From Begonia masoniana (lineage: Eukaryota > Streptophyta > Magnoliopsida > Cucurbitales > Begoniaceae): a stretch of 64,000 nt of DNA. Of the stretch, positions 1 through 52,861 are shown one piece after another (within the stretch, counting starts at the first letter, position 1; each line of letters starts with the position of its first letter). Below the pieces are notes generated by a model. The model ran no database searches and was not told where the DNA came from. It was given only the letters and a program-made list of their open reading frames with translations. The translations under genes were made by a program, and so were the position numbers. The stretch covers positions 19,066,531-19,130,530 of the forward strand of contig CM039506.1 in the NCBI GenBank assembly GCA_022432975.1. Direction: 5' to 3'.

Positions 1-2319
1 CATTAGCTTGATACGTTCAGTTGTTTTGGAACAAATCGACGGAAGTGAAGGTTCTTTTACTTCATCAAACCCATTACTAAGTCCTAATTACACGTCCATG
101 AAGCTTATGGGGTCCTCAATACACTTCGTTCTGATCACTTCAAGTTAAATCCTTGAAGGTGAAATGGATAACTTCGGTTGTAACAACAAGTCATGTAATA
201 GTGAACCTCATTATCTTGATACATTCAGTTCTTTTGGAACAAATCGATTGAAGTGAAGGTTCTTTTAATTCATCAGACGCATTACTAATTTCTAATTACG
301 CATCCATGAAGCCTATTTGGTCCTCAATACACTTCGTTCTAATCACTTTAAGTTAAAGCTTTGAAGGTGAAATGGATAACTTCGGTTGTAACAACAAGTC
401 ATGTAACAGTCAACCTCATTAGCTTGATACGTTCAGTTCTTTTGGAACAAATCGATTGAAGTGAAGGTTCTTTTAATTCATCAAACGCATAACTAAGTCC
501 TAATTACACGTCCATTAAGATTATTGGGTCCTCAATACACTTCGTTCTCATCACTTCGAGTTAAAGCCTTGAAGGTGAAATGGATAACTTCGGTTGTAAC
601 AACAAATCATGTAACAGTCAACCTTATTATCTTGATACCTTCAGTTCTTTTGGAACAAATCGATTGAAGTGAAGGTTCTTTTACTTCATCAAACGTATTA
701 CTAAGTTCTAATTACGCATCCATGAAGCTTATTTGGTTCTCAATACACTTCGTTCTGATCACTTCAAGTTAAAGCCTTGAAGGTGAAATGGATAACTTCG
801 GTTGTAACAAAAAGTCATGTAATAGTCAACCTCATTAGCTTGATACGTTCAGTTCTTTTGGAACAAATCGATTGAAGTGAAGGTTCTTTTACTTCATCAA
901 ACGCATTACTAAGTCCTATTTACGTGTCGATGAAGCTTATTGGGTCCTCAATACACTTCGTTCTCATCACTTCAAGTTAAAGCCTTGAAGGTGAAATGGA
1001 TAACTTCAGTTGTAACAACAAGTCATGTAACAGTCAACCTCATTGGCTTGATACGTTCTGTTCTTTTGAAACAAATTGATTGAAGTGAAGGTTCTTTTAC
1101 TTCATCAAACGCATTAGTAAGTCCTAATTACGAGTCCATGAAGCTTATTGGGTCCTCAATACACTTCGTTCTCATCATTTCAAGTTAAAGCTTTGAAAGT
1201 GAAATGGATATTTTCGGTTGTAACAACAAGTCATGTAGCAGTCAACCTCAATAGCGTGATACGTTCAGTTGTTTTGGAACAAATCGACTGAAGTGAAGGT
1301 TCTTTTACTTCTTCAAACGCATTACTAAGTCCTAATTACGCGTCCATGAATCTTATGGGGTCCTCAATACACTTCGTTCTTATCACTTCAAGTTAAATTT
1401 AATTCTTGAAGGTGAAATGGATAACTTCGGTTGTAACAACAAGTCATGTAACAGTCAACCTCATTATCTTGATACGTTCAGTTCTTTTGGAACAAATCGA
1501 TTGAAGTGAAGGTTCTTTTACTTCATCAAACGCATTACTAAGTTCTAATTACGCATCCATGAAGCTTATTTGGTTATCAATACTCTTCGTTCGGATCTCT
1601 TCAAGTTAAAGCCTTGAAGGTGAAATGGATAACTTCGGTTGTAACAATAAGTCATGTAACAGTCAACCTCATTAGCTTGATACGTTTAGTTCTTTTGGAA
1701 CAAATCGATTGAAGTGAAGGTTCTTTTACTTCATCAAACGCATTAATAAGTCCTAATTACGCGTCGATGAAGCTTATTGGGTCCACAATACACTTCGTTC
1801 TCATCACTTCAAGTTAAAGCCCTGAAGGTGAAATGGATAAATTCAATTGTAACAACAAGTCATGTAACAGTCAACCTCATTAGCTTGATACGTTCAGTAC
1901 TTTTGAAACAAATCGATTGAAGTGAAGGTTCTTTTACTTCATCAAACGCTTTACTAAGTCCTAATTACGCGTCCATGAATCTTATTGGGTCCTCAATACA
2001 TTTCGTTTTCATCACTTCAAGTTAAAGCCTTGAAGGTGAAATGGATAACTTCGGTTGTAACAGCAAGTCATGTAACAGTCAACCTCGTTAGCTTGATACG
2101 TTCAGATGTTTTGGGACAAATCGATTGAAGTGAAGGTTCTTTTACTTTATCAAACGCATTACTAAGTCCTAATTACATGTCCATTAAGATTATTGGGTCC
2201 TCAATACACTTCTTTCTCATCACTTCGAGTTAAAGCCTTGAAGGTGAAATGGATAACTTTGGTTGTAACAACAAGTCATGTAACAGTCAACCTCATTATC
2301 TTGATACTTTCAGTTCTTT
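1..2319 (+). repeat. 208-bp satellite array, block 1 (subfamily A)
   Basis: About eleven head-to-tail satellite monomers that recur every 208 bp, recognisable by AAGCTTATTGGGTCCTC, GATAACTTCGGTTGTAACAA and GGAACAAATCGATTG. Monomers here differ by scattered substitutions and carry diagnostic variants such as ATTATCTTGAT, GCGTGATAC and CGTTCGGATC in a set order. The block is cut at 2319 by element E1 and continues in the same phase at 7522. Short ORFs in it are frame accidents, because 208 is not a multiple of three. No gene is seen. Confidence 0.97.
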
Positions 2320-3490
2320 TGATGCGAACCTCGGATCGAAAGGACCCGGGACCCGACAACAACGCGGAATAATTCAAAGGAACGCCTTTTCGATTCAAGA
2401 ACAAAGTAAGGAACTAAGACCCAAATCGAATAATTCGATAGAACCCTAGTTATCAAAACAGGAGCTTGACCCGAGCCACACCTGTTGGCTGAACCAAAAC
2501 TATCAAAACAGGAGCTTGACCCAGACCAAACTCGTTGGTAAGAACCAAAGCTATCAAGCGAGACTCTTCAAGCGTGACTTGAAGAAGATCGTTGTTCTTC
2601 GCAAAGAACCAAAGAGAAATCCTCTCTAAAAAAACTCTCAATTTTTAATTCAAACTTGTTCTTCCTATTAAATCAAATAGTTTGCCATTAAATAGGGTAC
2701 ACATTAAAATTATACTAATTAATTAAAAAAAAACGAAAATTAAATAAAATAACTAATAAAATAGTGAGATAATGATCCTTGGCATGATCAGATATCATCT
2801 CACGTTTGAATATGATTTGAATTGATTTGAGTAGATTCTGTCGGATAAGATCTCTCATACGTGATTTGTTGGAATTTGCATGTTCTTCGCATGTGACTTT
2901 TTAATTCCTCGGATATGCATGTGCTTGGCGCATGTCCTCTTTAATTCCTACATGTGCATGTGCATGGCACATGTGTTTTAATTCTTACATGTGCATGTGC
3001 GTCACATCCTCCCAAATCTTCATGCATCTTTAGCCTTCCTTGCTTCAAAAGATCTTCCAATAATTTTGGGCTTCTTGCTCTTGTCATTGGGCCTGCCGTA
3101 TCAATAATTGGATCTTTGTTCTTGGGCTTTGACTTGGTCTCAATTTGGATCACATCATAAATCAAGTCATGTGGATCTTTATCTCTTTCCAACCCACGTG
3201 AATCTTTATCTCTTTGTACTTTGTGTGGATCTCTACCCTTCTCTCTCCAATCCGTTGGTATTTGTGGAGCCCAACTTTGCGCCTTATTGGGCTTCTTTTG
3301 CCAATTTTGTGGGGCCCAGTTCCATGCTACAAAACTTTTCATTTTTATAGTCTTGTGCTTTTGTTGTGATGGCTCTTTTCCTCGGGCTTCCAAGACTAAA
3401 CTATGTGAAGTTTTGTTCGTTGGACCTCCTTTATCTTCTAATAGATCATGGTCCTTGACAATGAGATTTATCGCTCCTCAGTTCACATCA
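2320..3490 (-). repeat. E1 3' LTR (left copy)
   Basis: On the minus strand it begins TGATGTGAAC directly after the polypurine tract and ends GGTTCGCATCA. It contains a tandem pair of about 50 bp near 2451-2550 (each with ATCAAAACAGGAGCTTGACC) and about four imperfect 35-bp units rich in ATGTGCATGTG at 2875-3005. An open frame on the minus strand (2941-3393) encodes a GPMTRAR-like motif, the kind of tail found after integrase in relatives, but here it is not joined to the internal ORF, which stops at 3478. Confidence 0.95.
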
Positions 3491-5511
3491 TTCCCTCCCC
3501 TTTCGAAAAGATTCGTCCTCGAATCTCCTACATCATATAAAAATAAGTTAGTAAAATAAAAATATGTGCTTACATTACCGTATTCACTCGGTAGGTTGAT
3601 CTTGTAAGCGATGTCGTTGATGCACTCTAAAACTTGGAAAGGATCATCTCCTCGAGGTTGTAGCTTGTTGTTCCGTGTGTTCAGAAACCTTTCTTTTTGT
3701 AGACGTAGCCCAACCAAATCTCCGGGTTTAAAAATAAGTCTTACCATTGAATGAAATTTCTTAGCAAATTCGTCTTTTTTACGTTCATGCACAAGAACAA
3801 ACTTATTAGTTAACGAAGTTAATAATTTTAACGGATTTAATAGATTAAAATCTTCAATAATATCAAACAGTGAATAATATCGAATAGAAATAAACTCCCT
3901 TAAAATGCTAAAATCAGATTTGAAACTCGCAAAATATGTATCTACAATTTTGTCAGAAACCAAGTTGTATGCAAAGTAATCAATGACAAATTTTTCAATA
4001 AAATAATGTTGCATATTATCTATTAACCTTAAACATATAATAGATGGTGCAATATAAAAATCATATGGTCTTACCAACCACTCAAACCTATTTGATGTTT
4101 CCGGTCGACTTGTAACTAGCGTACTCGGTACGAGGTTTTTATGCTTCTCAATCTCTCTCAAAGGAGAAATTTCTCTTCGAAACTCCTCGGGAATTTCATA
4201 TTTATTTTTCTGCAAAAGAAAAGAAACAACACTTGGAAGAAAACTTGGTAAGTCGTTAGATGATAAATAAACATATTTATATAAAAGTAAAATCATCTCA
4301 CGCTTATCATCACTTTTGTTCATCAACACAATTTGTTTATCACTCGACTTTTGTTCACTCTCTCCCTCGGTTTTTATCTCTTTTCCCTCGATTTTTCTCT
4401 CTTCCTCCCTCGTTTTTTCTTCCCTCTTTGTACTCTTTTCAACTATTTTTCTTTCTCCACTTTCTTTTTCTATTTTGGCCTCTTTTTCAACTAATTTCTT
4501 TTCACCTTTTTCTTTCTCTCTCTCGTCCTTTATGATTTGAAATTCCTTCGTGATCCTCTCTTGATCTTCAATTGCCTCCCACGACTTTAATGGTGTAAGG
4601 ATCATAGGTCTTCCATTGTTAACCAATGCATACTCGTTCTTTGATTTATCGGTCTTGAATTTTTGTGAAAATACATTAGTAGCAACGATTTTGCTCTTAG
4701 GATCCTGTCTCGGTTTCAGATTTTCATCCTCCCAATTTGATTTCCATGATGAATTCAAAGTTGATCCCATCTTAGAATTCCGTTTTGCTCTTAGTTGCCG
4801 TTCGATATTGATTGATTTGTGAAGCAATTCTTCTAAGTCCACATGATGTTGTAGATCTATGACATCCGCTATCTCTCTATTTAGTCCTCTAACAAATCGA
4901 GTCATTGTTTCTTCGTCGTCTTCCTCCACATTAGCTCTTTTCATAGCTATTTTCATCTCTTTATAATAATCTTCCACGCTTTTATAACCTTGAGTCAAGT
5001 TTTGGAGTTTTCGACACAAATCTCTATAATACTGTGATGGAACAAATCTTTTTCGCATGAGTGCCTTCATGTCCTTCCATGTCTGAACTTGTGACACACC
5101 ATACCTTCTTCGGTACTTTACTAGTTCATCCCACCAATTGTTAGCGTAGTCCGTGAACTTCATTGTCACCAATTTAAGTTTCTTTTCCTCTGTGTAGTTT
5201 TGGTATTCAAACAATAGGTCCACCTTTCTTTCCCATTCCAAATACACCTCGGGATCACTTTTCCCTTGGAAAGAAGGAATATTTACCTTGATGTTACTTA
5301 GATCATCATCTCCTCGATACGACCTATCATTTCTTTCCTTTTGATAATATCCATTATACTCTTTAAATTCTACATCAAAATCCTTCATTTGCCGCATATG
5401 ACTAGGGAATGGAGATTCCAATCGGTCCATCCTCGTATTTAAAGCCTTGAAATTTTCTAGCATGGCTTTCATGAACAACTTTAAGTCAACATCGTTGTGT
5501 TCTCCACTCAT
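3478..5511 (-). CDS. E1 Gag fused to internally deleted Pol, single open frame
   Basis: An ATG at 5511 opens a 677-residue frame that stays open to a TGA at 3478-3480, 11 to 13 bases inside the 3' LTR. A longer reading from a TTG at 5580 adds only a hydrophobic stretch from A/T-rich leader and is not accepted. Residues about 85-240 are a retrotransposon Gag domain (YLEWERKVD, TWKDMKALMRKRF, FVRGLNREIADV). Residues about 292-410 match the lysine/glutamate-rich linker that follows protease in E3, so the CCHC knuckle and protease are missing. Residues about 440-540 are a worn RT piece, with YFDD replaced by YFAY. Residues about 540-677 match the integrase C-terminal end (KPGDLV, PRGDDPFQVLE). 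All three deletions preserve frame. Gag may package RNA; the Pol pieces cannot be catalytic. Whether the whole chain is made is unknown. Confidence 0.88.
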   Translation of the reverse strand: MSGEHNDVDLKLFMKAMLENFKALNTRMDRLESPFPSHMRQMKDFDVEFKEYNGYYQKERNDRSYRGDDDLSNIKVNIPSFQGKSDPEVYLEWERKVDLLFEYQNYTEEKKLKLVTMKFTDYANNWWDELVKYRRRYGVSQVQTWKDMKALMRKRFVPSQYYRDLCRKLQNLTQGYKSVEDYYKEMKIAMKRANVEEDDEETMTRFVRGLNREIADVIDLQHHVDLEELLHKSINIERQLRAKRNSKMGSTLNSSWKSNWEDENLKPRQDPKSKIVATNVFSQKFKTDKSKNEYALVNNGRPMILTPLKSWEAIEDQERITKEFQIIKDEREKEKGEKKLVEKEAKIEKESGERKIVEKSTKREEKTREEERKIEGKEIKTEGESEQKSSDKQIVLMNKSDDKREMILLLYKYVYLSSNDLPSFLPSVVSFLLQKNKYEIPEEFRREISPLREIEKHKNLVPSTLVTSRPETSNRFEWLVRPYDFYIAPSIICLRLIDNMQHYFIEKFVIDYFAYNLVSDKIVDTYFASFKSDFSILREFISIRYYSLFDIIEDFNLLNPLKLLTSLTNKFVLVHERKKDEFAKKFHSMVRLIFKPGDLVGLRLQKERFLNTRNNKLQPRGDDPFQVLECINDIAYKINLPSEYGNVSTYFYFTNLFLYDVGDSRTNLFERGGNDVN
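3491..3503 (-). other. E1 polypurine tract
   Basis: The minus strand reads AAAGGGGAGGGAA immediately before the TG of the 3' LTR, the normal place for the plus-strand primer of an LTR retrotransposon. The same purines are codons of the internal ORF (Arg-Gly-Gly-Asn near its end). E2 and E3 carry the near-identical tract AGAGGGAGGGAA in the same position. Confidence 0.92.
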
Positions 5512-6214
5512 GATATTTTTTTTTTCGACCACAATAAGAAAATAAAAGAAAATAGTTAGAAGTAAAAGAAAAATAATCAAGTAATGGACCTTACCTCTCC
5601 CTCACGTGTTTGCTCTCGATGGATATCACTCCACTCGTGTTTCGCTCAAAAATTAAGGCTTTTTCTATAATAGTCTCACCCTCTTGCCTTTTACCTCTAG
5701 ATCTCCCTTCTAGTTCTTTACGTAAGAACTTGATCGATGGTAAATATTCAACAAGCCAAACTATAAAAAATCAAACTTTAAAGCTTAAAAGTTCAAACTT
5801 GTAAAGATGGCTAAATCAAGGGTATGATTGAAATAAGACAAAACTTTGGATGATGACAATCTTTCAAATGAAGATTCAACAATATGAACCTTCAAGGAAT
5901 AAATTTGGATAAAGACAATATTTCGAATGAAGATTCAATAATTTGAATTTTCAAAGAACAATTATCTACGAATTTAAGAACGAATTTTTGAATTTAAAAG
6001 GGCTAGAAATTTCAAAATCTCTAGAACAAAATTTCGATTTTTTTTTTTTTTTTAACTTCTCACAACTCCTTTTTTTTTTGACTTTTGACAACAACTCTCT
6101 TTTTTTTTTTTGACTTTTGACAATTTTTTTTTGTACTCTTCGAATTTCAAGAGGAGAAATTCACAAAAAGAAAAAAAATTGATGATAAAAATCGAGACTT
6201 GATAATAAAGACGG

Positions 6215-6245
<31 letters not shown>

Positions 6246-6337
6246 GTGCTTTTTTTGAGTACTAGGACGAATAGAATAAGATGAAGAGAATATTGATAAC
6301 AAAAATTAAAGATAGCTTCTTGAATCAAGGAGCCGAA
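5512..6337 (-). other. E1 5' leader between primer site and gag
   Basis: About 0.8 kb without a convincing gene. On the minus strand it is A-rich, with several A runs (the longest, 29 bases, at 6217-6245) and repeated pieces such as TTGTCAAAAGTC near 6080-6125. Two similar sentences of about 80 bp containing TTCGAATGAAGATTCAA recur at 5855-5950. It is the normal place for the 5' untranslated and packaging region. An A-rich leader is relevant because E3 ends in a far longer homopolymer tract at the equivalent side. Confidence 0.7.
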
Positions 6338-6349
6338 GCTCTGATACCA
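6338..6349 (-). promoter_or_regulatory. E1 primer-binding site (initiator Met tRNA type)
   Basis: The minus strand reads TGGTATCAGAGC two bases after the 5' LTR end (CA at 6353-6352). This is the standard plant primer site complementary to the 3' end of initiator methionine tRNA. It fixes element orientation as minus. Confidence 0.93.
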
Positions 6350-6351
6350 AC

Positions 6352-7521
6352 TGATGCGAACCTCGGATCGAAAGGACCCGGGACCCGACAACAACGCGGA
6401 ATAATTCAAAGGAACGCCTTTTCGATTCAAGAACAAAGTAAGGAACTAAGACCCAAATCGAATAATTCGATAGAACCCTAGTTATCAAAACAGGAGCTTG
6501 ACCCGAGCCATACCTGTTGGCTGAACCAAAACTATCAAAACAGGAGCTTGACCCAGACCAAACTCGTTGGTAAGAACCAAAGCTATCAAGCGAGATTCTT
6601 CAAGCGTGACTTGAAGAAGATCGTTGTTCTTCGCAAAGAACCAAAGAGAAATCCTCTCTAAAAAAACTCTCAATTTTTAATTCAAACTTGTTCTTCCTAT
6701 TAAATCAAATAGTTTGTCATTAAATAGGCTACACATTAAAATTAAACTAATTAATTAAAAAAAACGAAAATTAAATAAAATAACTAATAAAATAGTGAGA
6801 TAATGATCCTTGGCATGATCAGATATCATCTCACGTTTGAATATGATTTGAATTGATTTGAGTAGATTCTGTCGGATAAGATCTCTCATACGTGATTTGT
6901 TGGAATTTGCATGTGCTTCGCATGTGACTTTTTAATTCCTCGGATATGCATGTGCTTGGCGCATGTCCTCTTTAATTCCTACATGTGCATGTGCATGGCA
7001 CATGTGTTTTAATTCTTACATGTGCATGTGCGTCACATCCTCCCAAATCTTCATGCATCTTTAGCCTTCCTTGCTTCAAAAGATCTTCCAATAATTTTGG
7101 GCTTCTTGCTCTTGTCATTGGGCCTGCCGTATCAATAATTGGATCTTTGTTCTTGGGCTTTGACTTGGTCTCAATTTGGATCACATCATAAATCAAGTCA
7201 TGTGGATCTTTATCTCTTTCCAACCCACGTGAATCTTTATCTCTTTGTACTTTGTGTGGATCTCTACCCTTCTCTCTCCAATCCGTTGGTATTTGTGGAG
7301 CCCAACTTTGCGCCTTATTGGGCTTCTTTTGCCAATTTTGTGGGGCCCAGTTCCATGCTACAAAACTTTTCATTTTTATAGTCTTGTGCTTTTGTTGTGA
7401 TGGCTCTTTTCCTCGGGCTTCCAAGACTAAACTATGTGAAGCTTTGTTCGTTGGACCTCCTTTATCTTCTAATAGATCATGGTCCTTGACAATGAGATTT
7501 ATCGCTCCTCGGTTCACATCA
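6352..7521 (-). repeat. E1 5' LTR (right copy)
   Basis: Nearly identical to 2320-3490. It should hold the promoter of the element; the A/T-rich part around 6700-6800 is a possible core promoter but no box is certain. Its minus-strand open frame (6972-7517) runs almost the whole of one side and encodes a GPMTRAR-like motif. It lacks an ATG at its beginning (the apparent start is GTG), so independent expression is doubtful. Confidence 0.95.
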
Positions 7522-10500
7522 TCTTTTGGAACAAATCGATTGAAGTGAAGGTTCTTTTACTTCATCAAACGCATTACTAAGTTCTAATTACGCGTCCATG
7601 AAGCTTATTTGGTCCTCAATACACTTCGTTCTCATCACTTCAAGTTAAAGCCTTGAAGGTGAAATGGATAACTTCAGTTGTAACAACAAGTCATGTAACA
7701 GTCAACCTCATTGGCTTGATACGTTCTGTTCTTTTGAAACAAATTGATTGAAGTGAAGGTTCTTTTACTTCATCAAACGCATTAGTAAGTCCTAATTACG
7801 AGTCCATGAAGCTTATTGGGTCCTCAATACCCTTCGTTCTCATCATTTCAAGTTAAAGCCTTGAAGGTCAAATGGATAACTTCGGTTGTAACAACAAGTC
7901 ATGTAACAGTCAACCTCATTATCTTGATACGTTCAGTTCTTTTGGAACAAATCGATTGAAGTGAAGGTTCTTTTACTTCATCAAACGCATTACTAAGTTC
8001 TAATTACGCATCCATGAAGCTTATTTGGTCATCAATACACTTCGTTCGGATCTCTTCAAGTTAAAGCCTTGAAGGTGAAATGGATAACTTCGGTTGTAAC
8101 AATAAGTCATGTAACACTCAACCTCATTAGCTTGATACGTTTAGTTGTTTTGGAACAAATCGATTGAAGTGAAGGTTCTTTTACTTCATCAAACGCATTA
8201 ATAAGTCCTAATTACGCGTCGATGAAGCTTATTGGGTCCACAATACACTTCGTTCTCATCACTTCGAGTTAAAACCCTGAAGGTGAAATGGATAAATTCA
8301 ATTGTAACAACAAGTCATGTAACAGTCAACCTCATTAGCTTGATACGTTCAGTACTTTTGAAACAAATCGATTGAAGTGAAGGTTCTTTTACTTCATCAA
8401 ACACATTAGTAAGTCCTAATTACGAGTCCATGAAGCTTATTGGGTCCTCAATACACTTCGTTCTCATCATTTCAAGTTAAAGCTTTGAAGGTGAAATGGA
8501 TAACTTCGGTTGTAACAACAAGTCATGTAACAGTCAACCACATTAGCTTGATACGTTCAATTCTTTTGGAACAAATCGATTGAAGTGAAGGTTCTTTTAC
8601 ATCATCAAACGCATTACTAAGTCCTATTTCCGCGTCGATGAAGCTTATTGGGTCCTCGATACACTTCGTTCTCATCACTTCAAGTTAAAGCCTTGAAGGT
8701 GAAATGGATAACTTCAGTTGTAACAAGAAGTCATGTAACAGTCAACCTCATTGGCTTGATACGTTCAGTTCTTTTGAAACAAATCGATTGAAGTGAAGGT
8801 TCTTTTACTTCATCAAACGCATTAGTAAGTCCTAATTGCGAGTCCATGAAGCTTATTGGGTCCTCAATACCCTTCGTTCTCATCATTTCAAGTTAAAGCT
8901 TTGAAGGTGAAATGGATAACTTCGGTTGTAACAACAAGTCATGTAACAGTCAACCTCATTAGCGTGATACATTCAGTTGTTTTGGAACAAGTCGACTGAA
9001 GTGAAGGTTCTTTTACTTCTTCAAACGAATTATTAAGTCCTAATTACGCTTCCATGAATCTTATGGGTCCTCAATACACTTCGTTCTGATCACTTCAAAT
9101 TAAAGCCTTGAAGGTGAAATGGATAACTTCGGTTGTAACAACAAGTCATGTAACAGTCAAACTCATTATCTTGATACGTTCAGTTCTTTTGGAACAAATC
9201 GATTGAAGTGAAGGTTCTTTTACTTCATCAAACGCATTACTAAGTTCTAATTACGCATCCATGAAGCTTATTTGGTCTTCAATACACTTCGTTCGGATCA
9301 CTTCAAGTTAAAGCCTTGAAGGTGAAATGGATAACTTCGGTTGTAACAACAAGTCATGTAACAGTCAACCTCATTAGCTTGATACGTTTAGTTCTTTTGG
9401 AACAAATCGATTGAAGAGAAGGTTCTTTTACTTCATCAAACGCATTACTAAGTCCTAATTACGTGTCGATGAAGATTATTGGGTCCTCAATACACTTCGT
9501 TCTCATCACTTCAAGTTAAAGCCCTGAAGGTGAAATGAATAACTTCAATTGTAACAACAAGTCATATAACAGTCAACCTCATTAGCTTGATACGTTCAGT
9601 ACTTTTGAAACAAATCGATTGAAGTGAAGGTTCTTTTATTTCATGAAACGCATTACTAAATCCTAATTACGCGTCCATGAAGCTTATTGGGTCCTCAATA
9701 CACTTCGTTCTCATCACTTCAAGTTAAAGCCTTGAATGTGAAATGGATAACTTCGGTTGTAACAACAAGTCATGTAACAGTCAACCTCATTAGCTTCATA
9801 CGTTATGTTCTTTTGGAACAAATCGATTGAAGTGATGGTTATTTTACTTAATCAAACGCATTACTAAGTCCTACTTACGCGTCCTTGAAGCTTATTGGGT
9901 CCTCAAAACACTTCGTTCTCATCACTTCAAGTTAAAGCATTGAAGGTGAAATGGACAACTTCGGTTGTAACAACAAGTCATGTAACAGTCAACCTCGTTA
10001 GCTTGATACGTTAAAATGTTTTGGAACAAATCGATTGAAGTGAAGGTTCTTTTAATTCATCAAATGCATTACTAAGTCCTATTACACGTCCATTAAGATT
10101 ATTGGGTCCTCAATACACTTCGTTCTCATCACTTCGAGTTAAAGCCTTGAAGGTGAAATGGATAACTTTGGTTGTAACAAGAAGTCATGTAACAGTCAAC
10201 CTCATTATCTTGATACTTTCAGTTCTTTTGGAACAAATCGATTGAAGTGAAGGTTCTTTTACTTCATGAAACGCATTACTAAGTTCTAATTACGCATCTA
10301 TGAAGCTTATTTGGTTCTCAATACACTTTGTTCTGATCACTTCAAGTTAAAGCCTTGAAGGTGAAATGTATAACTTCGGTTGTAACAACAAGTCATGTAA
10401 CAGTCAACCTCATTAGCTTGATATGTTCAGTTCTTTTGGAACAAATCGATTGAAGTGAAGGTTCTTTTACTTCATCAAACGCATTACTAAGTCCTATTTA

Positions 10501-16500: not shown

Positions 16501-18411
16501 TAATTACGCGTCCCTGAAGCCTATTGGGTCCTCAATACAATTCATTCGGATTACTTCAAGTTAAAGCCTTGAAGGTGAAATGGATAACTTCGGTTGTAAC
16601 AACAAGTCATGTAACAGTCAACCTCATTAGCTTGATACGTTTAGTTCTTTTTGGAACAAATCGATTGAAGTGAAGGTTCTTTTACTTCATGAAACGCATT
16701 ACTAAGTCCAAATTACGCGTCCATGAAGCTTATTGGGTCCTCAATACACTTCGTTTTCATCACTTCAAGTTATAGCCTTGAAGGTGAAATGGATAACTTC
16801 AGTTGCAACAACAAGTCATGTAACAGTCAACCTCGTTAGCTTGATACGTTCAGTTCTTTTGAAACAAATTGATTGAAGTGAAGGTTTTTTTACTTGATCA
16901 AAAGCATTACTAAGTACTAATTACGCGTCCATGATGCTTATTAGGTCCTCAATACACTTCGATCTCATCACATCAAGTTAAAGCCTTGAAGGTGAAATGG
17001 ATAACTTCGGTTGTAACAACAAGTCATGTAACAAACAACTTCATTGGCTTGATACGTTTAGTTCTTTTGGAACAAATCGATTGAAGTGAAGGTTCTTTTA
17101 CCTCATTAAACGCATTACTAAGTCCTTATTACGCGTCCATGAAGCTTATTGGGTCCTCAATACACTTCGTTCTCATCACTTCAATTTAAAGCCTTGAAGG
17201 TAAAATGGATAACTTCGGTTGTAACACCAAGTCATGTAATATTCAACCTTATTAGCTTGAAATGTTTAGTTCTTTTGGAACAAATCGATTGAAGTGAAGG
17301 TTCTTTTACTTCATCAAACGCATTACTAAGTCCTAATTACGCATCCATGAAGCTTATTGGGTCCTCAATACACTTCGTTCTCATCATTTCAAGTTAAAGC
17401 CTTGAAGGTGAAATGGATAACTTCGGTTGTAACAACAAGTCATGTAACAGTCAACGTCATTAGCTTGATATGTTCAGTTCTTTTGAAACAAATCGATTGA
17501 AGTGAAGGTTTTTTTACTTGATCAAAAGCATTACTAAGTACTAATTACGTGTCCATGAAGCTTATTAGGTCCTCAATACACTTCGATCTCATCACATCAA
17601 GTTAAAGCCTTGAAGGTGAAATGGATAACTTCGGTTGTAACAACAAGTCATGTAACAGTCAACCTTAGTAGCTTGATACGTTCAGTTCTTTTGGAACAAA
17701 TCGATTGAAGTGAAGGTTCTTTTACCTCATCAAACGCATTACTAAGTCCTAATTACGCGTCCATGAAGCTTATTGGATCCTCAATACACTTCGTTCTCAT
17801 CACTTCAAGTTAAAGCCTTCAAGGTGAAATGGATAACTTCCGTTGTAAAAACAAGTCATGTAACAGTCAACCTCATTAGCATGATACGTTCAGTTCTTTT
17901 GAAAGAAATCGATTGAAGTGAAGGTTCATTTACTTCATCAAACGCATTACTAAGTCCCAATTACGCGTCCATGAAGCTTATTGGGTCCTCAATACACTTC
18001 GTTCTCATCACTTCAAGTTAAAGCCTTGAAGGTGAAATGGATAACTTCGGTTGTAACAACAAGTCATGTAACAGTCAACCACATTAGCTTGATACGTTCA
18101 GATATTTTGGAACAAATCGATTGAAGTGAAGATTCTTTTACTTCACCAAACGCATTACTAAGTTCTAATTACGCATCCATGAAGCTTATTTGGTCCTTAA
18201 TACACTTCGTTCTCATCACTTCAAGTTAAAGCCTTAAAGGTGAAATGGATAACTTCGGTTGGAACAACAAGTCATGTAGCATTCAACCTCATTAGCTTGA
18301 TACGTTCAGTTCTTTTGGAACAAATCGATTGAAGTGAATGTTCTTTTACTTCATCAAACGCATTACTAAGTCCTAATTACACGTTCATGAAGCTTATTGG
18401 GTCCTCAATAC
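7522..18411 (+). repeat. 208-bp satellite array, block 2 (subfamily A)
   Basis: About 52 plus-oriented monomers continuing the phase broken by E1. Three textures are visible. At 7.5-11.1 kb variant monomers recur in five-monomer order. At 11.1-13.5 kb many single-base insertions and deletions break the 208-bp register. At 13.5-18.4 kb the register is kept and a six-monomer pattern repeats (about 1249 bp, seen with CGATCTCATCACATC at 15711, 16960 and 17584). The last five bases, AATAC, are one copy of the S1 target duplication. No genes are seen. Confidence 0.97.
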
Positions 18412-27126: not shown

Positions 27127-28345
<1,219 letters not shown>

Positions 28346-33414: not shown

Positions 33415-34277
33415 TGATATGAACCTAAGATATTAGAGATCTTAGACCCAACACGCAATACGGAATTCAAAGGGAATAATGCCTTTATTGATTCGAAAGA
33501 ATAAGAAGAAGGAACTTGACCCCAATCGATAGATAGCGATGGAACCAAAGTTATCAGAAAAGTAGCTAGACCCGAACCAAACTCGTTGGTTGAACCTAAG
33601 CTATCAAGTTCGATCTTTTCAAGAATACACTTGAAGAAGATCAAGTTCTAATCCAAGAACTCAAGAAGAGAATTATAAGGATCTCACCTCAAAGCAAAAG
33701 CTTAATAAAAATCAATTCATTCAAAAGTCCCTAAAATCTATTACAAGCCTCCCTTAAATAGGCAAAGGGATAAAACTAATAAGGTAATAACATAATTAGA
33801 AATAATCAAAATATCCTAATTAGACAATAGGAAAGTTTCCAAAAATAAGAGAAGGAAAATTGGAAAGTGGTGCAAGTGGATGGTGGCCGCGGAACTTAGG
33901 TTTAAGTAACGTGAGTCTCGAGTTTAATTCAGATTGTGGGCCTAGCCCAATGGTGTGGCACTTGTAAGAACTTTGAAGTTAAAAACTCTTGGGCTAGAGT
34001 AGTGCCATGTTGGGTGACCATGTGGGAAGTCTTTATTTTTGAGACTTCGTTTTGGGCTTCTTTTCCAGTCCTTGCTTCTTCATCAACACTTAGTAATATT
34101 ATTGCTCGTTGCACATTTTGTGATGATTCCTTTTCTTGGATGTCTTTGATTAAAATTTGTAGTCTTTTGTTTATTTTCTTCGTTCTTGATCTCGTCATTG
34201 GTCCTCCTATATTCATCAATGGATCTTGGCTCCCTATTGCTTCTTGATTGTCCTTAGTTGCTCCTTTGACTACATCA
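33415..34277 (-). repeat. E3 3' LTR
   Basis: 863 bp, minus strand TGATGTAGTC... to ...GGTTCATATCA. The end nearest 33415 is recognisably related to the E1 LTR (AACCTAAGATATT versus AACCTCGGATCG, followed by similar AAGGAAC, GACCC and AACTCGTTGGT phrases). The terminal part of the pol frame (33929-34277) lies in it. Confidence 0.88.
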
Positions 34278-34560
34278 TTCCCTCCCTCTTCGAAAAGATT
34301 CGTCCTCGAATCTGCATCAAACAAAGATAAGTCACTAACATTAAAAGTAGCGCTTACATTACCATATTCGCTCGGTAAGTCAATCTTATAAGCATTGTCA
34401 TTGATGCGTTCCAACACTTGGAAGGGACCGTCTCCTCGCGGTTGTAATTTATTCTTTCTCCGCTCCGCAAATCTCTCCTTTCGTAGATGCACCCAAACCC
34501 AATCTCCGGGTTCAAAAATGATTTCTTTTCTACTCTTGTTGGCTTGTCGCGCATAGTGCT
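33929..34560 (-). pseudogene. E3 integrase C-terminal end, frameshifted from main pol
   Basis: The correct continuation of integrase after a one-base loss at about 34560. It holds the GDWVW, LRKERF and [11 protein letters not shown] blocks, then a [10 protein letters not shown] segment, EGGND over the polypurine tract, and GPMTRSRTKK inside the LTR, ending at 33929. Apart from this one shift the reading is clean, which suggests either a recent mutation or a consensus error. Confidence 0.87.
34278..34289 (-). other. E3 polypurine tract
   Basis: Minus strand AGAGGGAGGGAA, identical to E2, abutting the LTR start TGATG. It is read as codons in Glu-Glu-Gly-Gly-Asn-Asp. Confidence 0.9.
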
Positions 34561-37500
34561 CGTTCTTTGTATAATGTTTTCTCGAACCTTCGAGTGTAAT
34601 TCTCTTACGAATTCAGCCTTTCTTTTTCCATTTAAATCAACCAATTCATTAGAAGGTAACGGTAATAAATCAAGCGGTGTAAGAGGGTTAAAGCCATACA
34701 CAATTTCAAATGGTGAGTAAGAAGTAGTAGAATGAACAACTCTATTGTAAGCGAACTCAACATGTGGCAAGCAATTTTCCCATTGTTTTAAATTCTTAGA
34801 AATTATTGCTCTCAACAAAGTAGATAAAGTTCGATTCACTACCTCGGTTTGTCCATCCGTTTGGGGGTGTGCCACGGTGGAAAACAACAATTTTGTACCT
34901 AGCTTATTCCATAAGGTTCTCCAAAAGTGACTTAGAAACTTCACATCCCTATCACTAACAATTGTTCTAGGTAATCCATGTAAACGCACAATTTCTTTAA
35001 AAAATAAATCCGCTATATGTGTAGCATCATTAGTTTTAGAACATGCTATAAAATGTGCCATTTTACTAAATCGATCCACAACCACAAAAATACTATCCTT
35101 ACCTCCTTGTGTTCTTGGTAAACCTAACACAAAGTCCATGGAAATATCCGTCCAAGGGTGCTCGGGCACGGGTAAAGGACTATACAATCCATATGGTTTG
35201 ATCTTTGACTTTGCCTTCCTACATTCAATGCATCTTTCACAAATAGTTATAACATCATGCTTCATTTTTGGCCAAAAGAAATGTTCTATCAAGACATTCA
35301 AAGTTTTGTCAATTCCAAAGTGTCCCATTAATCCTCCACCATGTGTTTCTCTAACAAGCAATTCACGTAATGAGCATTTAGGTATACAAAGTTTATCCTT
35401 TCGAAATAAATACCCATCATGTCTATAATAATCAGCACATGCAATTTTCTCACAATCTCTCCATACATGACAAAAATCTATATCTGATTCATACAAATCC
35501 TTAATAAATTCAAATCCTAACAATTTAGATTGTAGAGAAGTGATTAAAACGTACCTCCTTGACAACGCATCAGCGACTACGTTGTCTTTACCTTTTTTGT
35601 AATGGATGACATATGGAAAGGTCTCGATGAATTCCATCCACTTGGCGTGCCTCTTGTGCAATTTACCTTGTGACTTTAGGTGCTTCAAACTCTCGTGATC
35701 GGAATGAATAATAAACTCCTTGGGCCACAAGTAGTGTTGCCATGTTTGTAACGTCCTTACCAAAGCATAGAGTTCCTTGTCATATGTTGGATAATTTAAT
35801 GCCGCTCCACTAAGCTTTTCACTGAAGTAAGCAATCGGCTTCATTTCCTGCATCAAAACACCTCCAATTCCCTTTCCCGACGCGTCACATTCGATTTCAA
35901 ATGTTTTATCAAAATTTGGTAAAACTAGAAGGGGAGCATTAGTTAGTTTCTCTTTTAACAAATTAAACGCTTTGTCATGTACTTCGGTCCAGTTAAATGC
36001 AATATTCTTTTTAACTAACTCATTCATAGGTGCCGCAATAGTGCTAAAGTCTCTTACAAATCTCCTATAAAAGCTAGCCAAGCCATGAAAGCTACGTACC
36101 TCATTTGCATTCTTTGGTGTGGGCCATTCCTTGATTGCTCTTATCTTTTCCTCATCTACGGATACCCCCTTTGAGCTAACTACAAAACCAAGGAAAACTA
36201 CCGATTCCATGCAAAAGGTACACTTTTTAAGATTAGCATACAATAGATTCGATTTTAACACACTAAATACAGATCTCAAATGCTTAACATGTTCGTCAAG
36301 TGACTTACTATACACCAAAATATCATCAAAGTAGACCACAACAAATTTTCCAATAAATTGCCTTAAAACATGATTCATCAATCTCATAAACGTGCTCGGT
36401 GCATTAGATAGTCCAAACGGCATAACCAACCATTCATAAAGACCATATTTTGTTTTAAAAGCTGTTTTCCATTCATCTCCTTGTTTCATGCGAATTTGAT
36501 AATATCCATTCTTTAAATCAATTTTGGAAAACATACATGCACCATACAGTTCATCAAGCATATCATCAAGACGAGGAATAGGGTGTCGATACTTTACCGT
36601 AATTTTATTTACCGCTCGACAATCGACGCACATTCTCCAAGTGCCGTCCTTTTTTGGAACCAAAATAACCGGAACCGAGCATGGGCTAAGACTCTCCTTC
36701 ACTAGGCCTTTCTCTACCAACTCATCTACTTGCCTTTGAATTTCCTTGGTTTCCTCTGGATTTGCTCGGTATGCGGGTCGGTTTGGGATCGTCGCTCCGG
36801 GGATGAAATCGATTTGATGCTCGATTCCCCTAAGTGGGGGAACTCCTTTAGGTAATTCCTCTGGAAATATGTCTTCAAATTCCTGCAAAAGAGAGGTAAC
36901 ACTTATGGGAAGAGAATTTGTTAGTTCGTTAGTGGAAAAATAAACATCTTTGTAGAGTAACAAAATCATCTCCTCACCTTTCCTCACAAGTCCACTCTTT
37001 TTTCTCTCTTCTCCCTCGTTTCTTTTCCCTTCCTCCAATTTCTTTTCTTCCTCTTTGTCTTTTTTGCTCTCTTTATTTATGACTTTTCTCTCATCGGCTT
37101 TTTTGTCTCCTCTTTCTTTTTCGCCTTTTTTCTTCTCTTCTTTCATGCTTGAATTTTCGACTACGCCATTTTTGTCATTTTGGATCTCTTTGGCAATCCT
37201 CTCTTGATCCAAGCTTGCTTCCCACGGTGGTAATGGTTTTAGTATTACCAACCTCCCATTTTGAGTAAGCGAATACTCATTTTTGTAGCCGTTATGCTTA
37301 ACCGTTCTATCATATTGCCATGGTCTCCCCAATAGGATGTGAGTTGCTTGCATTGGCACTACGTCACACAAAATCTCATCTTTGTACTTTCCGATTGATA
37401 ATGTGATGTTTACTTGTCTTGTTACCTTAATTTCGCCACAATCGCTCAACCATTGCAATTTGTACGGCTTTGGGTGTCGCTTGGTTTGCAAATTTAACTT

Positions 37501-37776
37501 TTGGACCAATAATGTACTAGCCACGTTTGTGCAACTTCCGCTATCGATGATCATGCTACATACCTTGTTGTTGACATGACACCTAGTATGAAAGATGTTT
37601 TCCCTTTGGGCTTTGTCGTCGTCCTCCTTAATTTGTACACTTAAGGCTCTCCTTGTGACTAATAAATCTCCTTTGACCGGTTCCTCCACGTCTACGTCAC
37701 TACAATCTTCGAGTGATGGCATCTCGTTATCGCTTGAACTCACACTTTCTATATCACCATTCTCTAAAAAGACCAT
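34561..37776 (-). pseudogene. E3 Pol: protease, reverse transcriptase, RNase H, integrase
   Basis: About 1072 good residues counted from an internal Met at 37776. Protease: [11 protein letters not shown] with catalytic Asp at about 78. A Lys/Glu-rich linker follows at about 200-270. RT: about 310-560, with [13 protein letters not shown] (Asp 420) and YFDDILVYS (482-490). RNase H: about 625-745, from [11 protein letters not shown] to DALSRRYV. Integrase: HHCC finger about 811-852, then Asp 881 (SMDFVLGLP), Asp 942 (VSDRDVKF) and Glu 978 ([10 protein letters not shown]), which gives 35 residues between the last two as in DD35E enzymes. All catalytic residues are present. The frame is lost at about 34560; the following 68 residues to a stop at 34354 are out of frame. 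Gag lies upstream in the same frame without a stop, so this was one Gag-Pol polyprotein. Confidence 0.92.
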
Positions 37777-38262
37777 TGCACGCTTATTGGGACAATTTGA
37801 TGCAATGTGCCCAATTCCTTGGCATCGATAACACTTGACTTCTCTAGTCCGAGTTAGTGTTGGAACCTCGCTCTTTCCTTTAGGTGGGTTGAAGTTATTA
37901 GCGACGATTTTTCCTTTGTGGTCCTCCCTCGGGTTTGGCTTCTCTCCTTTCCAATTTGGTTTCCACGAACTATTTGACGCTGTGTTTACCTTTGCACTTT
38001 TCTTGGCATTTAGTTGTCGTTCGATTTTGATCGCCTTGTGTAGTAATTCCTCATGTCCAAATAGTGTTGTAAATCTACTATGTCGGCAATTTCTCGATTA
38101 AGTCTCCTCACAAACCTTGCCATTGGGCTTCTCCATCCTCGTTAACATCGGCCTTTATCATGGCCATATCACATTTCTTTATAATACTCCTCACACTTTT
38201 ACTCTTGAGTAAGACCTTGAAGTTCAGACACAAATCCCTTAGTAATTGATGGGAAAGATACC
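37777..38262 (-). pseudogene. E3 Gag C-terminal part with CCHC knuckle
   Basis: The frame of Pol continues upstream into Gag. The codons at 37833-37789 encode a zinc knuckle CX2CX4HX4C (Cys-Tyr-Arg-Cys, His, Cys). Further upstream are stretches homologous to E1 Gag ([21 protein letters not shown]), but small indels at about 38052 and several between 38120 and 38220 shift the frame. The Gag N-terminus is missing: homology stops where the T-rich tract begins. Clustered indels next to a homopolymer favour poor consensus quality here. Confidence 0.82.
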
Positions 38263-38284
38263 TTTTTTTTTTTTGAATTTTCGG

Positions 38285-38363
<79 letters not shown>

Positions 38364-38372
38364 AATTTTCGG

Positions 38373-38678
<306 letters not shown>

Positions 38679-38687
38679 AATTTTCGG

Positions 38688-38863
<176 letters not shown>

Positions 38864-38897
38864 AATTTTCGGAATTTTTTTTTTTTTGAATTTTCGG

Positions 38898-39006
<109 letters not shown>

Positions 39007-39015
39007 AATTTTCGG

Positions 39016-39522
<507 letters not shown>

Positions 39523-39531
39523 AATTTTCGG

Positions 39532-39571
<40 letters not shown>

Positions 39572-39580
39572 AATTTTCGG

Positions 39581-39695
<115 letters not shown>

Positions 39696-39854
39696 AATTT
39701 TCGGAATTTTTTTTTTTTTTTTTTTTTTGAATTTTCGGAATTTTTTTTTTTTTTTTTTGAATTTTCGGAATTTTTTTTTTTTTTTTTTGAATTTTCGGAA
39801 TTTTTTTTTTTTTTTTTTGAATTTTCGGAATTTTTTTTTTTTTTGAATTTTCGG

Positions 39855-39988
<134 letters not shown>

Positions 39989-39997
39989 AATTTTCGG

Positions 39998-40048
<51 letters not shown>

Positions 40049-40085
40049 AATTTTCGGAATTTTTTTTTTTTTTTTGAATTTTCGG

Positions 40086-40134
<49 letters not shown>

Positions 40135-40170
40135 AATTTTCGGAATTTTTTTTTTTTTTTGAATTTTCGG

Positions 40171-40212
<42 letters not shown>

Positions 40213-40213
<1 letters not shown>

Positions 40214-40341
40214 AAACCCGGCAAACTTGCAGAAATAGAAATCCGACTTGAGATTCGGATGCTAGGGTTCGAGACAAGCAAAGATATGTCTTTCTCGATT
40301 GGCAGTACAAAAGAAGTTTCTCGTTATTAACAAACGAGAGC
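40213..40341. repeat. 129-bp unique insert, copy 2
   Basis: Exact copy of 39262-39390 by eye. Perfect identity of two such pieces inside a degenerate homopolymer region points to a very recent duplication or to the same molecule being assembled twice. Confidence 0.85.
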
Positions 40342-40422
40342 TTTTTTTTTTTTTTTTTTTTTGAATTTTCGGAATTTTTTTTTTTTTGAATTTTCGGAAT
40401 TTTTTTTTTTTTTTTTTTTTTT

Positions 40423-43400
40423 TTTTGGAACAAATCGATTGAAGTGAAGTTTCTTATACTTCATCAAACGCATTACTAAGTCCTAATTACGCGTCCATGA
40501 AGGTTATTGGGTCCTCAATACACGTCGTTCTCATCACTTCAAGTTAAAACCTTGAAGGTGAAATGGATAACTTAGGTTCTAACCACAAGTCTAGTAACAG
40601 TCAACCTCTTTTCCTTGATACATTCAGTTCTTTTGGAACAAATCGATTAAAGTGAAGTTTCTTATACTTTATCAAACGCATTACTAAGTCCTAATTACGC
40701 GTCCATGAAGGTTATTGGGTCCTCAATACACTTCGTTCTCATCACTTCAAGTTAAACCTTGAAGGTGAAATGGATAACTTAGGTTCTAACCACAAGTCAT
40801 GTAATAGTCAACCTCATTTGCTTGATACGTTCAGTTCTTTTGGAACAAATCGATTGAAGTGAAGTTTCTTATACTTCATCAAACGCATTACTAAGTCCTA
40901 ATTACGCGTCCATGAAGGTTATTGGGTCCTCAATACACTTCGTTCTCATCACTTCAAGTTAAACCTTGAAGGTGAAATGGATAACTTAGGTTCTAACCAC
41001 AAGTCATGTAACAGTCAACCTCATTTGCTTGATACGTTCAGTTCTTTTGGAACAAATTGATTGAAGTGAAGTTTCTTATACTTCATCAAACGCATTACTA
41101 AGTCCTAATTACGCGTCCATGTAGCTTATTGGGTCCTCAATACACTTCGTTCTCATCACTTCAAATTAAAAACTTAAAGGTGAAATGGATAACTTAGGTT
41201 CTAACAACAAGTCATGTAACAGTCAACCTCATTTGCTTGATACGTTTAGTTCTTTTGGAACAAATCGATTGAAGTGAAGTTTCTTATACATCATCAAACG
41301 CATTACTAAGTCCTAATTACGCGTCCATGAAGGTTATTGGGTCCTCAATACACTTCGTTCTCATCACTTCAAGTTAAATCCTTGAATGTGAAATTGATAA
41401 CTTCGGTTGTAACAACAAGTCAAGTAACAGTCAACCTCATTAGCTTGATACGTTCAGTTCTTTTGGAACAAATCGATTGAAGTGAAGGTTCTTTTACTTC
41501 ATCAAACGCATTACTAAGTCCTAATTACGCGTCCATGAAGCTTATTGGGTCCTCAATACACTTCGTTCTCATCACTTCGAGTTAAAGCCTTGAAGGTGAA
41601 ATGGATAACTTCGGTTGTAACAACAAGTCATGTAACAGTCAACCTCATTAGCTTGATACGTTCAGTTCTTTTGGAACAAATCGATTGAAGTGAAGGTTCT
41701 TTTACTTCATCAAACGCATTACTAAGTCCTAATTACGCGTCCATGAAGCTTATTGGGTCCTCAATACACTTCGTTCTCATCACTTCGAGTTAAAGCCTTG
41801 AAGGTGAAATGGATAACTTCGGTTGTAACAACAAGTCAAGTAACAGTCAACCTCATTAGCTTGATACGTTCAGTTCTTTTGGAACAAATCGATTGAAGTG
41901 AAGGTTCTTTTACTTCATCAAACGCATTACTAAGTCCTAATTACGCGTCCATGAAGCTTATTGGGTCCTCAATACACTTCGTTCTCATCACTTCGAGTTA
42001 AAGCCTTGAAGGTGAAATGGATAACTTCGGTTGTAACAACAAGTCAAGTAACAGTCAACCTCATTAGCTTGATACGTTCAGTTCTTTTGGAACAAATCGA
42101 TTGAAGTGAAGGTTCTTTTACTTCATCAAACGCATTACTAAGTCCTAATTACGCGTCCATGAAGCTTATTGGGTCCTCAATACACTTCGTTCTCATCACT
42201 TCGAGTTAAAGCCTTGAAGGTGAAATGGATAACTTCGGTTGTAACAACAAGTCAAGTAACAGTCAACCTCATTAGCTTGATACGTTCAGTTCTTTTGGAA
42301 CAAATCGATTGAAGTGAAGGTTCTTTTACTTCATCAAACGCATTACTAAGTCCTAATTACGCGTCCATGAAGCTTATTGGGTCCTCAATACACTTCGTTC
42401 TCATCACTTCGAGTTAAAGCCTTGAAGGTGAAATGGATAACTTCGGTTGTAACAACAAGTCATGTAACAGTCAACCTCATTAGCTTGATACGTTCAGTTC
42501 TTTTGGAACAAATCGATTGAAGTGAAGGTTCTTTTACTTCATCAAACGCATTACTAAGTCCTAATTACGCGTCCATGAAGCTTATTGGGTCCTCAATACA
42601 CTTCGTTCTCATCACTTCGAGTTAAAGCCTTGAAGGTGAAATGGATAACTTCGGTTGTAACAACAAGTCAAGTAACAGTCAACCTCATTAGCTTGATACG
42701 TTCAGTTCTTTTGGAACAAATCGATTGAAGTGAAGGTTCTTTTACTTCATCAAACGCATTACTAAGTCCTAATTACGCGTCCATGAAGCTTATTGGGTCC
42801 TCAATACACTTCGTTCTCATCACTTCGAGTTAAAGACTTGAAGGTGAAATGGATAAATTCGGTTGTAACAACAAGTCATGTAACAGTCAACCTCATTAGC
42901 TTGAGACGTTCAGTTGTTTTGGAACAAATCGATAGAAGTGAAGGTTCTTTTACTTCATCAAACGCATTACTAAGTTCTAATTACATGTCCATGAAGCTTA
43001 TTAGGTCCTCAATACACTTCGTTCTCATCACTTCGAGTTAAAGCCTTGAAGTTGAAATGGATAACTTCGGTTGTAACAACAAGTCAAGTAACAGTTAACC
43101 TCATTAGCTTGATACGTTCAGTTTTTCTGGAACAAATCGATTGAAGTGAAGGTTCTTTAACTTCATCAAACGCATTACTTAATACTAATTGCGCGTCCAT
43201 GAAGCTTATTGGGTCCTCAATACACTTCGTTCTCATCACTTCCAGTTAAAGCCTTGAAGGTGAAATGGATAACTTCGGTTGTAACAACAAGTCAAGTAAC
43301 AGTCAACCTCATTAGCTTGATACGTCAGTTCTTTTGGAACAAATCGATTGAAGTGAAGGTTCTTTTTACTCATCAAACGCATTACTAAGTTCTAATTACA

Positions 43401-52690: not shown

Positions 52691-52861
52691 GCGACCAGTC
52701 GATGCTTCTTCTCCCTGGCCGAATTACATTATTGGCCCTCCCATGTTTTATTTTGTTTTATTTAACTTAATTGATTTAGTTTCCGCATAGTGTGTGAATA
52801 AAAATGAAAAATTTGTACGGTAATTAAGGGTAAATATGGGTACAGTATTAGGGTCGTTACA

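What the first reader, a model, noticed from the sequence alone, without database searches (positions are those of the whole stretch)
3478..5511. Young non-autonomous element whose only ORF is Gag joined in frame to three Pol remnants
Seen: E1 has 0.7%-different LTRs, a target duplication, primer site and polypurine tract, so it moved recently. Its single 677-residue frame lacks the CCHC knuckle and protease, keeps a post-protease linker, an RT strip in which YFDD is YFAY, and an integrase tail. Compared with E3, all three deletions keep frame and the diverged remnants have no stop. Known: TR-GAG-type elements keep Gag only. Inference: a mobile non-autonomous family in which an unusual Gag-delta-Pol protein has been kept open, perhaps because the RNA or protein is useful for packaging by an E3-like helper.
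Basis: partly seen in the sequence, partly recalled or inferred. Interest (0 to 1): 0.75.

Follow-up and report, generated by a model that had tools for sequence, protein, structure and literature searches.

The report
Defective jumping gene keeps frame open
A plant jumping gene that has lost its copying enzymes still spreads as a family and has kept one long reading frame free of stops, although beyond its capsid part the protein sequence itself seems to matter little.

Summary
Observation confirmed, interpretation partly supported. E1 (2320-7521, minus strand) is an intact LTR element: 8 LTR substitutions, 5-bp duplication, tRNA-Met primer site, polypurine tract. It is not unique: the 795-Mb host genome holds many copies with the same Pol deletions; 13 of 21 examined loci have both LTRs and identical duplications; all 29 ORFs examined carry YFAH or YFAY. 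The family frame is about 840-855 codons and enters the 3' LTR; E1's stop after residue 677 is private among them. A sister class keeps knuckle and protease.

Anatomy fits CRM chromoviruses, so this is a noaCRM-type element, a kind known from hop, sorghum and wheat; the E3 family is a young helper candidate.

New here: Gag is under purifying selection (omega 0.46), while RT strip, integrase tail and LTR-coded tail are near neutral by ML (0.93-1.16; NG86 gives lower values). Yet inherited stops are almost absent in frame (1 against 15.3 expected) and normal in the two other frames (22 and 20 against 17.0 and 15.4). Selection seems to guard openness more than sequence; NMD avoidance is one candidate.

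The parts
2315..2319 (.). left copy of the 5-bp target duplication TCTTT
   Evidence: sequence
2320..3490 (-). 3' LTR of E1 (1171 bp), TGATGTGAAC...GGTTCGCATCA in element orientation
2941..3490 (-). LTR-coded C-terminal tail of the family frame (codons about 675-857), with a GPMTRAR motif; interrupted in E1's 3' LTR by a private stop at 3478-3480
3491..3503 (-). polypurine tract AAAGGGGAGGGAA
3478..5511 (-). 677-aa ORF, Gag plus in-frame Pol remnants
4774..5511 (-). Gag part (codons 1-246), omega 0.46
4303..4671 (-). post-protease linker and charged stretch (about codons 281-403); knuckle and protease are deleted just upstream
4087..4302 (-). pre-RT remnant (codons 404-475), 41% aa identity to E3
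3892..4086 (-). RT strip (codons 476-540), YFAY at 3967-3978, 40% aa identity to E3, omega 0.97
3739..3891 (-). integrase C-terminal piece before the SH3-like tail (codons 541-591), omega 0.48 by ML
3484..3738 (-). integrase SH3-like tail (codons 592-676), 70% aa identity to E3
6027..6246 (-). A-rich stretch of the 5' UTR (T-rich on +), a feature of many CRM group A elements
   Evidence: PMC3059260
6338..6349 (-). primer binding site TGGTATCAGAGC (tRNA-Met type)
6352..7521 (-). 5' LTR of E1 (1170 bp)
7522..7526 (.). right copy of the target duplication TCTTT
33415..40423 (-). E3, autonomous-type relative (pol ORF 34354-37776), damaged here but a member of a family with open copies

Best explanation
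E1 is a young copy of a non-autonomous centromeric-type chromovirus family (noaCRM kind). Shown: it moved recently, many copies share its Pol deletions, the RT motif is lost in all 29 ORFs examined, and its Gag differs from the Gag of the one E3-family copy read (59% identity) and is under purifying selection. Inferred: its RNA is reverse-transcribed and integrated by enzymes of an autonomous CRM element, most likely the E3 family, while it supplies its own Gag. Shown: the frame is about 840-855 codons in open copies and enters the 3' LTR; among variants shared by several copies, stops are strongly depleted in this frame only, although post-Gag residues are mostly free to change. Inferred, most likely mechanism: premature stops harm the element at the RNA or translation level, for instance by leaving a long 3' untranslated stretch that invites nonsense-mediated decay, so the dead Pol remnants survive as translated filler.
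For: Copies and deletions. Identical TSDs at the LTR ends in 13 of 21 loci, LTR K2P 0.0026-0.0466 in those 13. YFAH 22, YFAY 7 of 29. ML omega in 23 copies: Gag 0.46 (2dlnL against 1 = 33.5), RT strip 0.97, integrase tail 1.16; LTR tail 0.93 in 19 copies. Stops among shared variants, post-Gag plus LTR tail: 1 against 15.3 expected in frame, 22 against 17.0 and 20 against 15.4 in the two other frames; singletons 13 against 18.0 in frame. Frame runs into the LTR: 838-854 aa in L010, L013, L015, L016, L021; in 8 of 8 ORF-only stretches the integrase-tail frame passes the LTR border. E3 family: 17 of 44 rows span residues 1 to at least 1078 without a stop. Shared PBS, LTR ends AGGTTC..ATCA, LTR 3' part about 76% identical.
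Against: Some residue constraint exists: pre-RT, RT and integrase-pre together give ML omega 0.69 (2dlnL 6.7); linker and charged part give 0.62 (2dlnL 5.0) in the 11 open copies; NG86 over 27 copies gives 0.55, bootstrap 0.44-0.71. Methods disagree on integrase-pre (0.48 ML, 1.06 by shared variants). Against E3 the integrase tail is far better kept (70%) than the RT strip (40%). Codons 404-591 alone show no significant stop deficit (1 against 3.5). Singletons in Gag and the post-Gag ORF also fall short of expected stops (3 against 8.5, 5 against 11.5), so sampling by protein score may add to the deficit there; the LTR tail, not in the query, is free of this. Indels help little: 9 frameshifting indels are single-copy, but 8 of them restore phase within their copy, and one-piece matches favour in-frame copies. 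NMD was not tested. No autonomous element with an E1-type LTR was recognised. Two shared stops exist (codons 167, 445), read here as recurrent C-to-T changes.
Confidence: 0.57

Rival explanations
1. The C-terminal part is a working protein piece, for example the integrase tail plus the LTR-coded CR-like motif, which tethers Gag particles or cDNA to centromeric chromatin.
For: Integrase tail 70-73% identical to E3 while the RT strip is 40-41% (E1 and L029). The LTR tail carries GPMTRAR-like motifs in frame and a net charge of +8 to +15 in 19 copies. NG86 gives 0.49 for the integrase tail in 27 copies.
Against: Within the family ML omega is 1.16 for the integrase tail and 0.93 for the LTR tail. 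The CR-like stretch is less conserved than the tether (0.797 against 0.835) and its TRAR core varies (SRVR, RRVR) among copies.
Confidence: 0.2
2. There is no selection on the frame beyond Gag; E1-like copies descend from a few recent open source elements and stops simply have not had time to appear.
For: Many copies are young, and the copies were found by protein score.
Against: The shared variants of the same copies produce stops at or above expectation in the two other frames. The remnants differ from E3 at about 60% of residues; a neutral simulation expects 5.3 stops in 183 codons (P of none 0.003), or 3.2 (P 0.04) if only half of the divergence was neutral.
Confidence: 0.14
3. The post-Gag stretch is kept for cis-acting RNA or DNA functions (packaging, PPT context, splice site), and the open frame is a by-product.
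For: The remnants border the PPT and LTR; the most conserved 36-mer of codons 404-600 looks like a splice acceptor.
Against: A cis function would not be expected to remove stops in one frame only; that 36-mer also encodes the S-LLQ motif of autonomous relatives.
Confidence: 0.09

Closest known systems
noaCRM of Humulus lupulus (PMC12371157, passages read)
   Same: Non-autonomous CRM elements with Gag, without RT, RH and INT, PBS shared with autonomous CRMs, recent movement; the dominant hop form is said to lack only these three, so protease should remain, as in the long class here
   Different: E1 class also lacks knuckle and protease but keeps an RT strip and integrase tail in frame; the passages read report no omega or stop test and are not clear on whether the targeting domain remains
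RLG_Quinta with RLG_Cereba in wheat (PMC11302176, abstract and passages read)
   Same: Gag-contributing partner with its own diverged Gag, shared PBS, LTR ends and 3' LTR half
   Different: Quinta is described as Gag plus DUF1; E1's C-terminal part is recognisably Pol remnants plus an LTR-coded tail
CR2-Sb-B and noaCR5-Sb of sorghum (PMC4079200, passages read)
   Same: Non-autonomous centromeric elements; RT and integrase absent or truncated in most CR2-Sb-B
   Different: Open-frame behaviour not described in the passages read
RLG_Sabrina_SA in wheat (PMC9744471, passages read)
   Same: Semi-autonomous Gag-protease ORF, like the long class
   Different: Other partner family; no Pol remnants described in the passages read
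TR-GAG elements (recalled; only search listings seen)
   Same: Gag-only non-autonomous LTR elements
   Different: E1 frame extends through Pol remnants and into the LTR

Membership tests
CRM chromovirus clade, group A | RT phylogeny places the element in the CRM clade | not tested
   E1 has only an RT strip; no RT tree was built for E3
CRM chromovirus clade, group A | LTR ends TGATG...CATCA, 5-bp TSD, LTR 299-1225 bp, element 5.1-10.2 kb | tested here: met
   LTR 1170/1171 bp, element 5.2 kb, TSD, ends; ranges from PMC3059260
CRM chromovirus clade, group A | tRNA-Met PBS, PPT, A-rich 5' UTR | tested here: met
   definition
[quoted passage not shown]
   5 of 21 loci open to a terminator inside the LTR; E1 itself stops at the fourth full LTR codon
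CRM chromovirus clade, group A | CR motif (TRARAR/K core) at the C-terminus | tested here: inconclusive
   GPMTRAR in several copies, SRVR or RRVR in others
CRM chromovirus clade, group A | centromeric location | tested here: inconclusive
   E1 lies in a 208-bp satellite array, but only 4 of 21 loci have it in a flank, one of them on one side only; no CENH3 data
noaCRM (non-autonomous CRM) | Gag kept; RT, RNase H and integrase core lost; mobile | tested here: met
noaCRM (non-autonomous CRM) | PBS and LTR motifs shared with an autonomous CRM in the same genome | tested here: met
   one E3-family copy: same PBS, similar LTR ends, 3' LTR part about 76%; open copies in the family; that E3 is CRM rests on the same anatomy, not on an RT tree
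TR-GAG | ORF codes for Gag alone | tested here: not met
   frame continues through Pol remnants and into the LTR

The most novel reading that the evidence does not exclude
Non-autonomous LTR elements are selected to keep a long frame open right into the 3' LTR for an RNA-level reason (such as escaping nonsense-mediated decay, or coupling translation to packaging) with little regard to what the post-Gag codons say. Some 'domains of unknown function' behind Gag in such elements, for example Quinta's DUF1, may then be decayed Pol filler rather than new proteins.
Probability: 0.33. Interest if true: 0.7.

Novelty: new variant of a known kind. Interest (0 to 1): 0.48.

Why it matters
Long open frames are usually read as proof that a protein is useful. 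Here residue selection and frame selection can be told apart in one family: Gag shows both, the tail mainly the second. That gives a direct test of whether RNA surveillance shapes transposon coding sequence, and a caution for naming domains in non-autonomous elements.

Tried and rejected
Gag fused to a centromere-targeting CR domain: the motif is in the frame but is not conserved above its surroundings. Autonomous element with an E1-type LTR: among the 53 LTR rows (40 candidates scored) the pairs I could recognise by spacing were about 5.2-5.3 kb, except one of 8.3 kb, whose interior I fetched and which holds a long-class-like ORF with a shortened Gag and extra DNA; many listed LTRs had no listed partner and their interiors were not examined. 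Relatives of the remnant in other species: residues 404-600 gave no match at E<=0.001 among 424 candidates. Viral contigs: no relative. Species from the 208-bp satellite: two paper searches returned nothing. Indel phase as evidence for frame selection: dropped, because 8 of 9 frameshifting indels are paired within a copy and the sample favours in-frame copies. IQ-TREE omega was first not read because it stands in the log file (read). Counting copies by a junction 36-mer failed because the tool stayed busy. P0014 from Rubroshorea has a similar outline but is an annotated gene model and may be a splice artefact.

Full report
What is there. E1 occupies 2320-7521 on the minus strand inside a 208-bp tandem array. 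The LTRs differ by 8 substitutions and one gap (K2P 0.0069; 0.26-0.49 Myr at 1.3e-8 and 7e-9 per site per year, rates recalled). Target duplication, PBS and PPT are intact. The ORF is Gag plus in-frame remnants.

The ORF crosses into the 3' LTR and stops at the fourth full LTR codon. E1's 5' LTR, read in the same frame, stays open for about 180 codons with a GPMTRAR motif. Among the 29 aligned copies only E1 has this stop. Five of 21 loci are open from the Gag ATG to a terminator in the LTR (838-854 aa: L010, L013, L015, L016, L021); E1 and L020 are open through the integrase tail. A terminator at codon 857 is shared by 11 loci, E1 included.

Copies. The ORF search of the host genome listed 100 matches, a lower bound. 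I fetched 20 further E1-class loci with flanks and ORF-only stretches of four long-class copies and four E1-like copies with a longer charged stretch. Of the 21 E1-class loci, 13 show both LTRs with identical 5-bp duplications at the LTR ends: E1, L009, L010, L012, L014-L017, L019-L022 and L026, LTR K2P 0.0026-0.0466 (L017's duplication was missed and seen). L025 has TCATT and TTATT; one search had matched it three bases off, so I do not count it. L011, L013, L018, L023 and L024 had cut, missing or disturbed LTRs or no TSD in the fetched stretch; L027 and L028 have no E1-type LTR, and their LTR tail resembles that of E3 instead. The long class (two of four fetched copies open to the end of the stretch) keeps CCHC and protease and shares the RT strip and integrase tail; L029's flanks carry E1-type LTR sequence. 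L029's protease core is 82% identical to E3.

Selection. L027 and L028 were dropped as strongly decayed, and the four long-class copies were dropped from the following, leaving 23. ML omega with a tree per region: Gag 0.46; basic piece 0.77; linker and charged part 0.79; pre-RT 0.83; RT strip 0.97; integrase-pre 0.48; integrase tail 1.16; LTR tail 0.93 (19 copies); pre-RT, RT and integrase-pre together 0.69. Against omega 1, 2dlnL is 33.5 for Gag, 7.8 for integrase-pre, 6.7 for the three together, and below 2 for the rest. In the 11 open copies: Gag 0.47, linker and charged 0.62 (2dlnL 5.0), RT strip 0.78, integrase-pre 0.49 (4.8), integrase tail 1.00, LTR tail 0.99 in 7. Pooled NG86 over 27 copies, long class included, is lower: Gag 0.24; all remnants 0.55, codon-bootstrap 0.44-0.71; integrase tail 0.49; LTR tail 0.72 in 19. 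That method ignores transition bias. By shared variants weighted for transitions: Gag 0.48, pre-RT 0.75, RT strip 0.96, integrase-pre 1.06, integrase tail 0.69, LTR tail 0.86. So constraint beyond Gag is weak and method-dependent rather than absent.

Openness. Spectrum-matched counts over post-Gag ORF and LTR tail: shared variants give 1 stop against 15.3 expected in frame, but 22 against 17.0 and 20 against 15.4 in the other frames; singletons give 13 against 18.0 in frame. By part, shared: post-Gag ORF 1 against 9.9, LTR tail 0 against 5.2; singletons 5 against 11.5 and 8 against 6.5. For codons 404-591 alone (1 against 3.5) and the integrase tail alone (0 against 1.7) the deficit is not significant. 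A Fisher test of shared against singleton stops gives P 0.002 (counts). Variants are not fully independent, because copies seem to recombine: pooled dS in Gag is about twice that of the remnants. Indels: five rows shared by several copies are all multiples of 3 and nine frameshifting ones are single-copy, but eight of the nine restore the phase within their copy and one-piece matches favour such copies, so I give this no weight.

History. Against outgroup proteins the RT strip of E1 differs 3.7 times as much as that of E3; pre-RT 2.0, integrase-pre 1.8 (two outgroups only) and integrase tail 1.8 times. So RT function was lost long before E1 inserted, and the tail was constrained longer than the RT strip (inference).

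Helper. The E3 family has 44 match rows, 17 of them spanning residues 1 to at least 1078 without a stop. One copy (L037) shows the same PBS, LTR end AGGTTCATATCA against AGGTTCGCATCA, and two stretches of the 3' part of the LTR at about 76% identity; its Gag is 59% identical to that of E1. These are the partner criteria used for wheat Cereba and Quinta (PMC11302176, abstract and passages). No autonomous element with an E1-type LTR was recognised, but most LTR interiors were not examined.

Known or new. CRM features from PMC3059260 (abstract, passages and one part of section 3) fit E1. Non-autonomous CRMs are known in hop (PMC12371157, passages), sorghum (PMC4079200, passages) and wheat. I found no report of frame selection without residue selection in such elements; the searches were made, in an open-licence library only, and most listed papers were not opened. 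In the EVADE element a spliced short Gag RNA lacks the protease domain (PMC12786077, passages), a lead for the splice-like site noted below.

Mechanism. Among variants passed on by replication, stops are removed while residues mostly are not. Avoiding a long 3' untranslated stretch and hence NMD fits this best among the readings considered, but it is inference; a C-terminal protein role is the main rival.

Noticed in passing
window 18411-20864 and 50307-52861: Two related (about 72% over their best stretch) solo-LTR-like elements of about 2.5 kb in opposite orientation; the first has TSD AATAC. The 208-bp satellite array changes strand across the second.
   Followed up: partly
window 27450-28116 and 38287-40212: A 667-bp A run (99% matches) between two 94%-alike repeats, and 1.9 kb of mostly T with interspersed GAATTTTCGGAA units where the 5' part of E3 should be: a large expansion of the A-rich 5' UTR or an assembly artefact.
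   Followed up: no
L027, L028: E1-type body with an E3-type LTR tail in old, decayed copies: LTR exchange between the non-autonomous family and the E3 lineage.
   Followed up: partly
E1 codons 429-441, window 4191-4226: The most conserved 36-mer of codons 404-600 (TTTCTTTTCTTTTGCAG...) looks like a splice acceptor; it also encodes the conserved S-LLQ motif.
   Followed up: no
G000:C5:19045523-19046690: An LTR reported as 100% identical to E1's 5' LTR lies about 20 kb before the window on the other strand.
   Followed up: no
L012, L017, L024: Identical RT-strip DNA in copies that differ elsewhere, a sign of recombination or gene conversion.
   Followed up: no
G000:C2:6436898-6437832: Nine match rows at 102-bp steps made from the 3' part of an E1-type LTR (positions 934-1051): LTR sequence turning into a small tandem array.
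   Followed up: no
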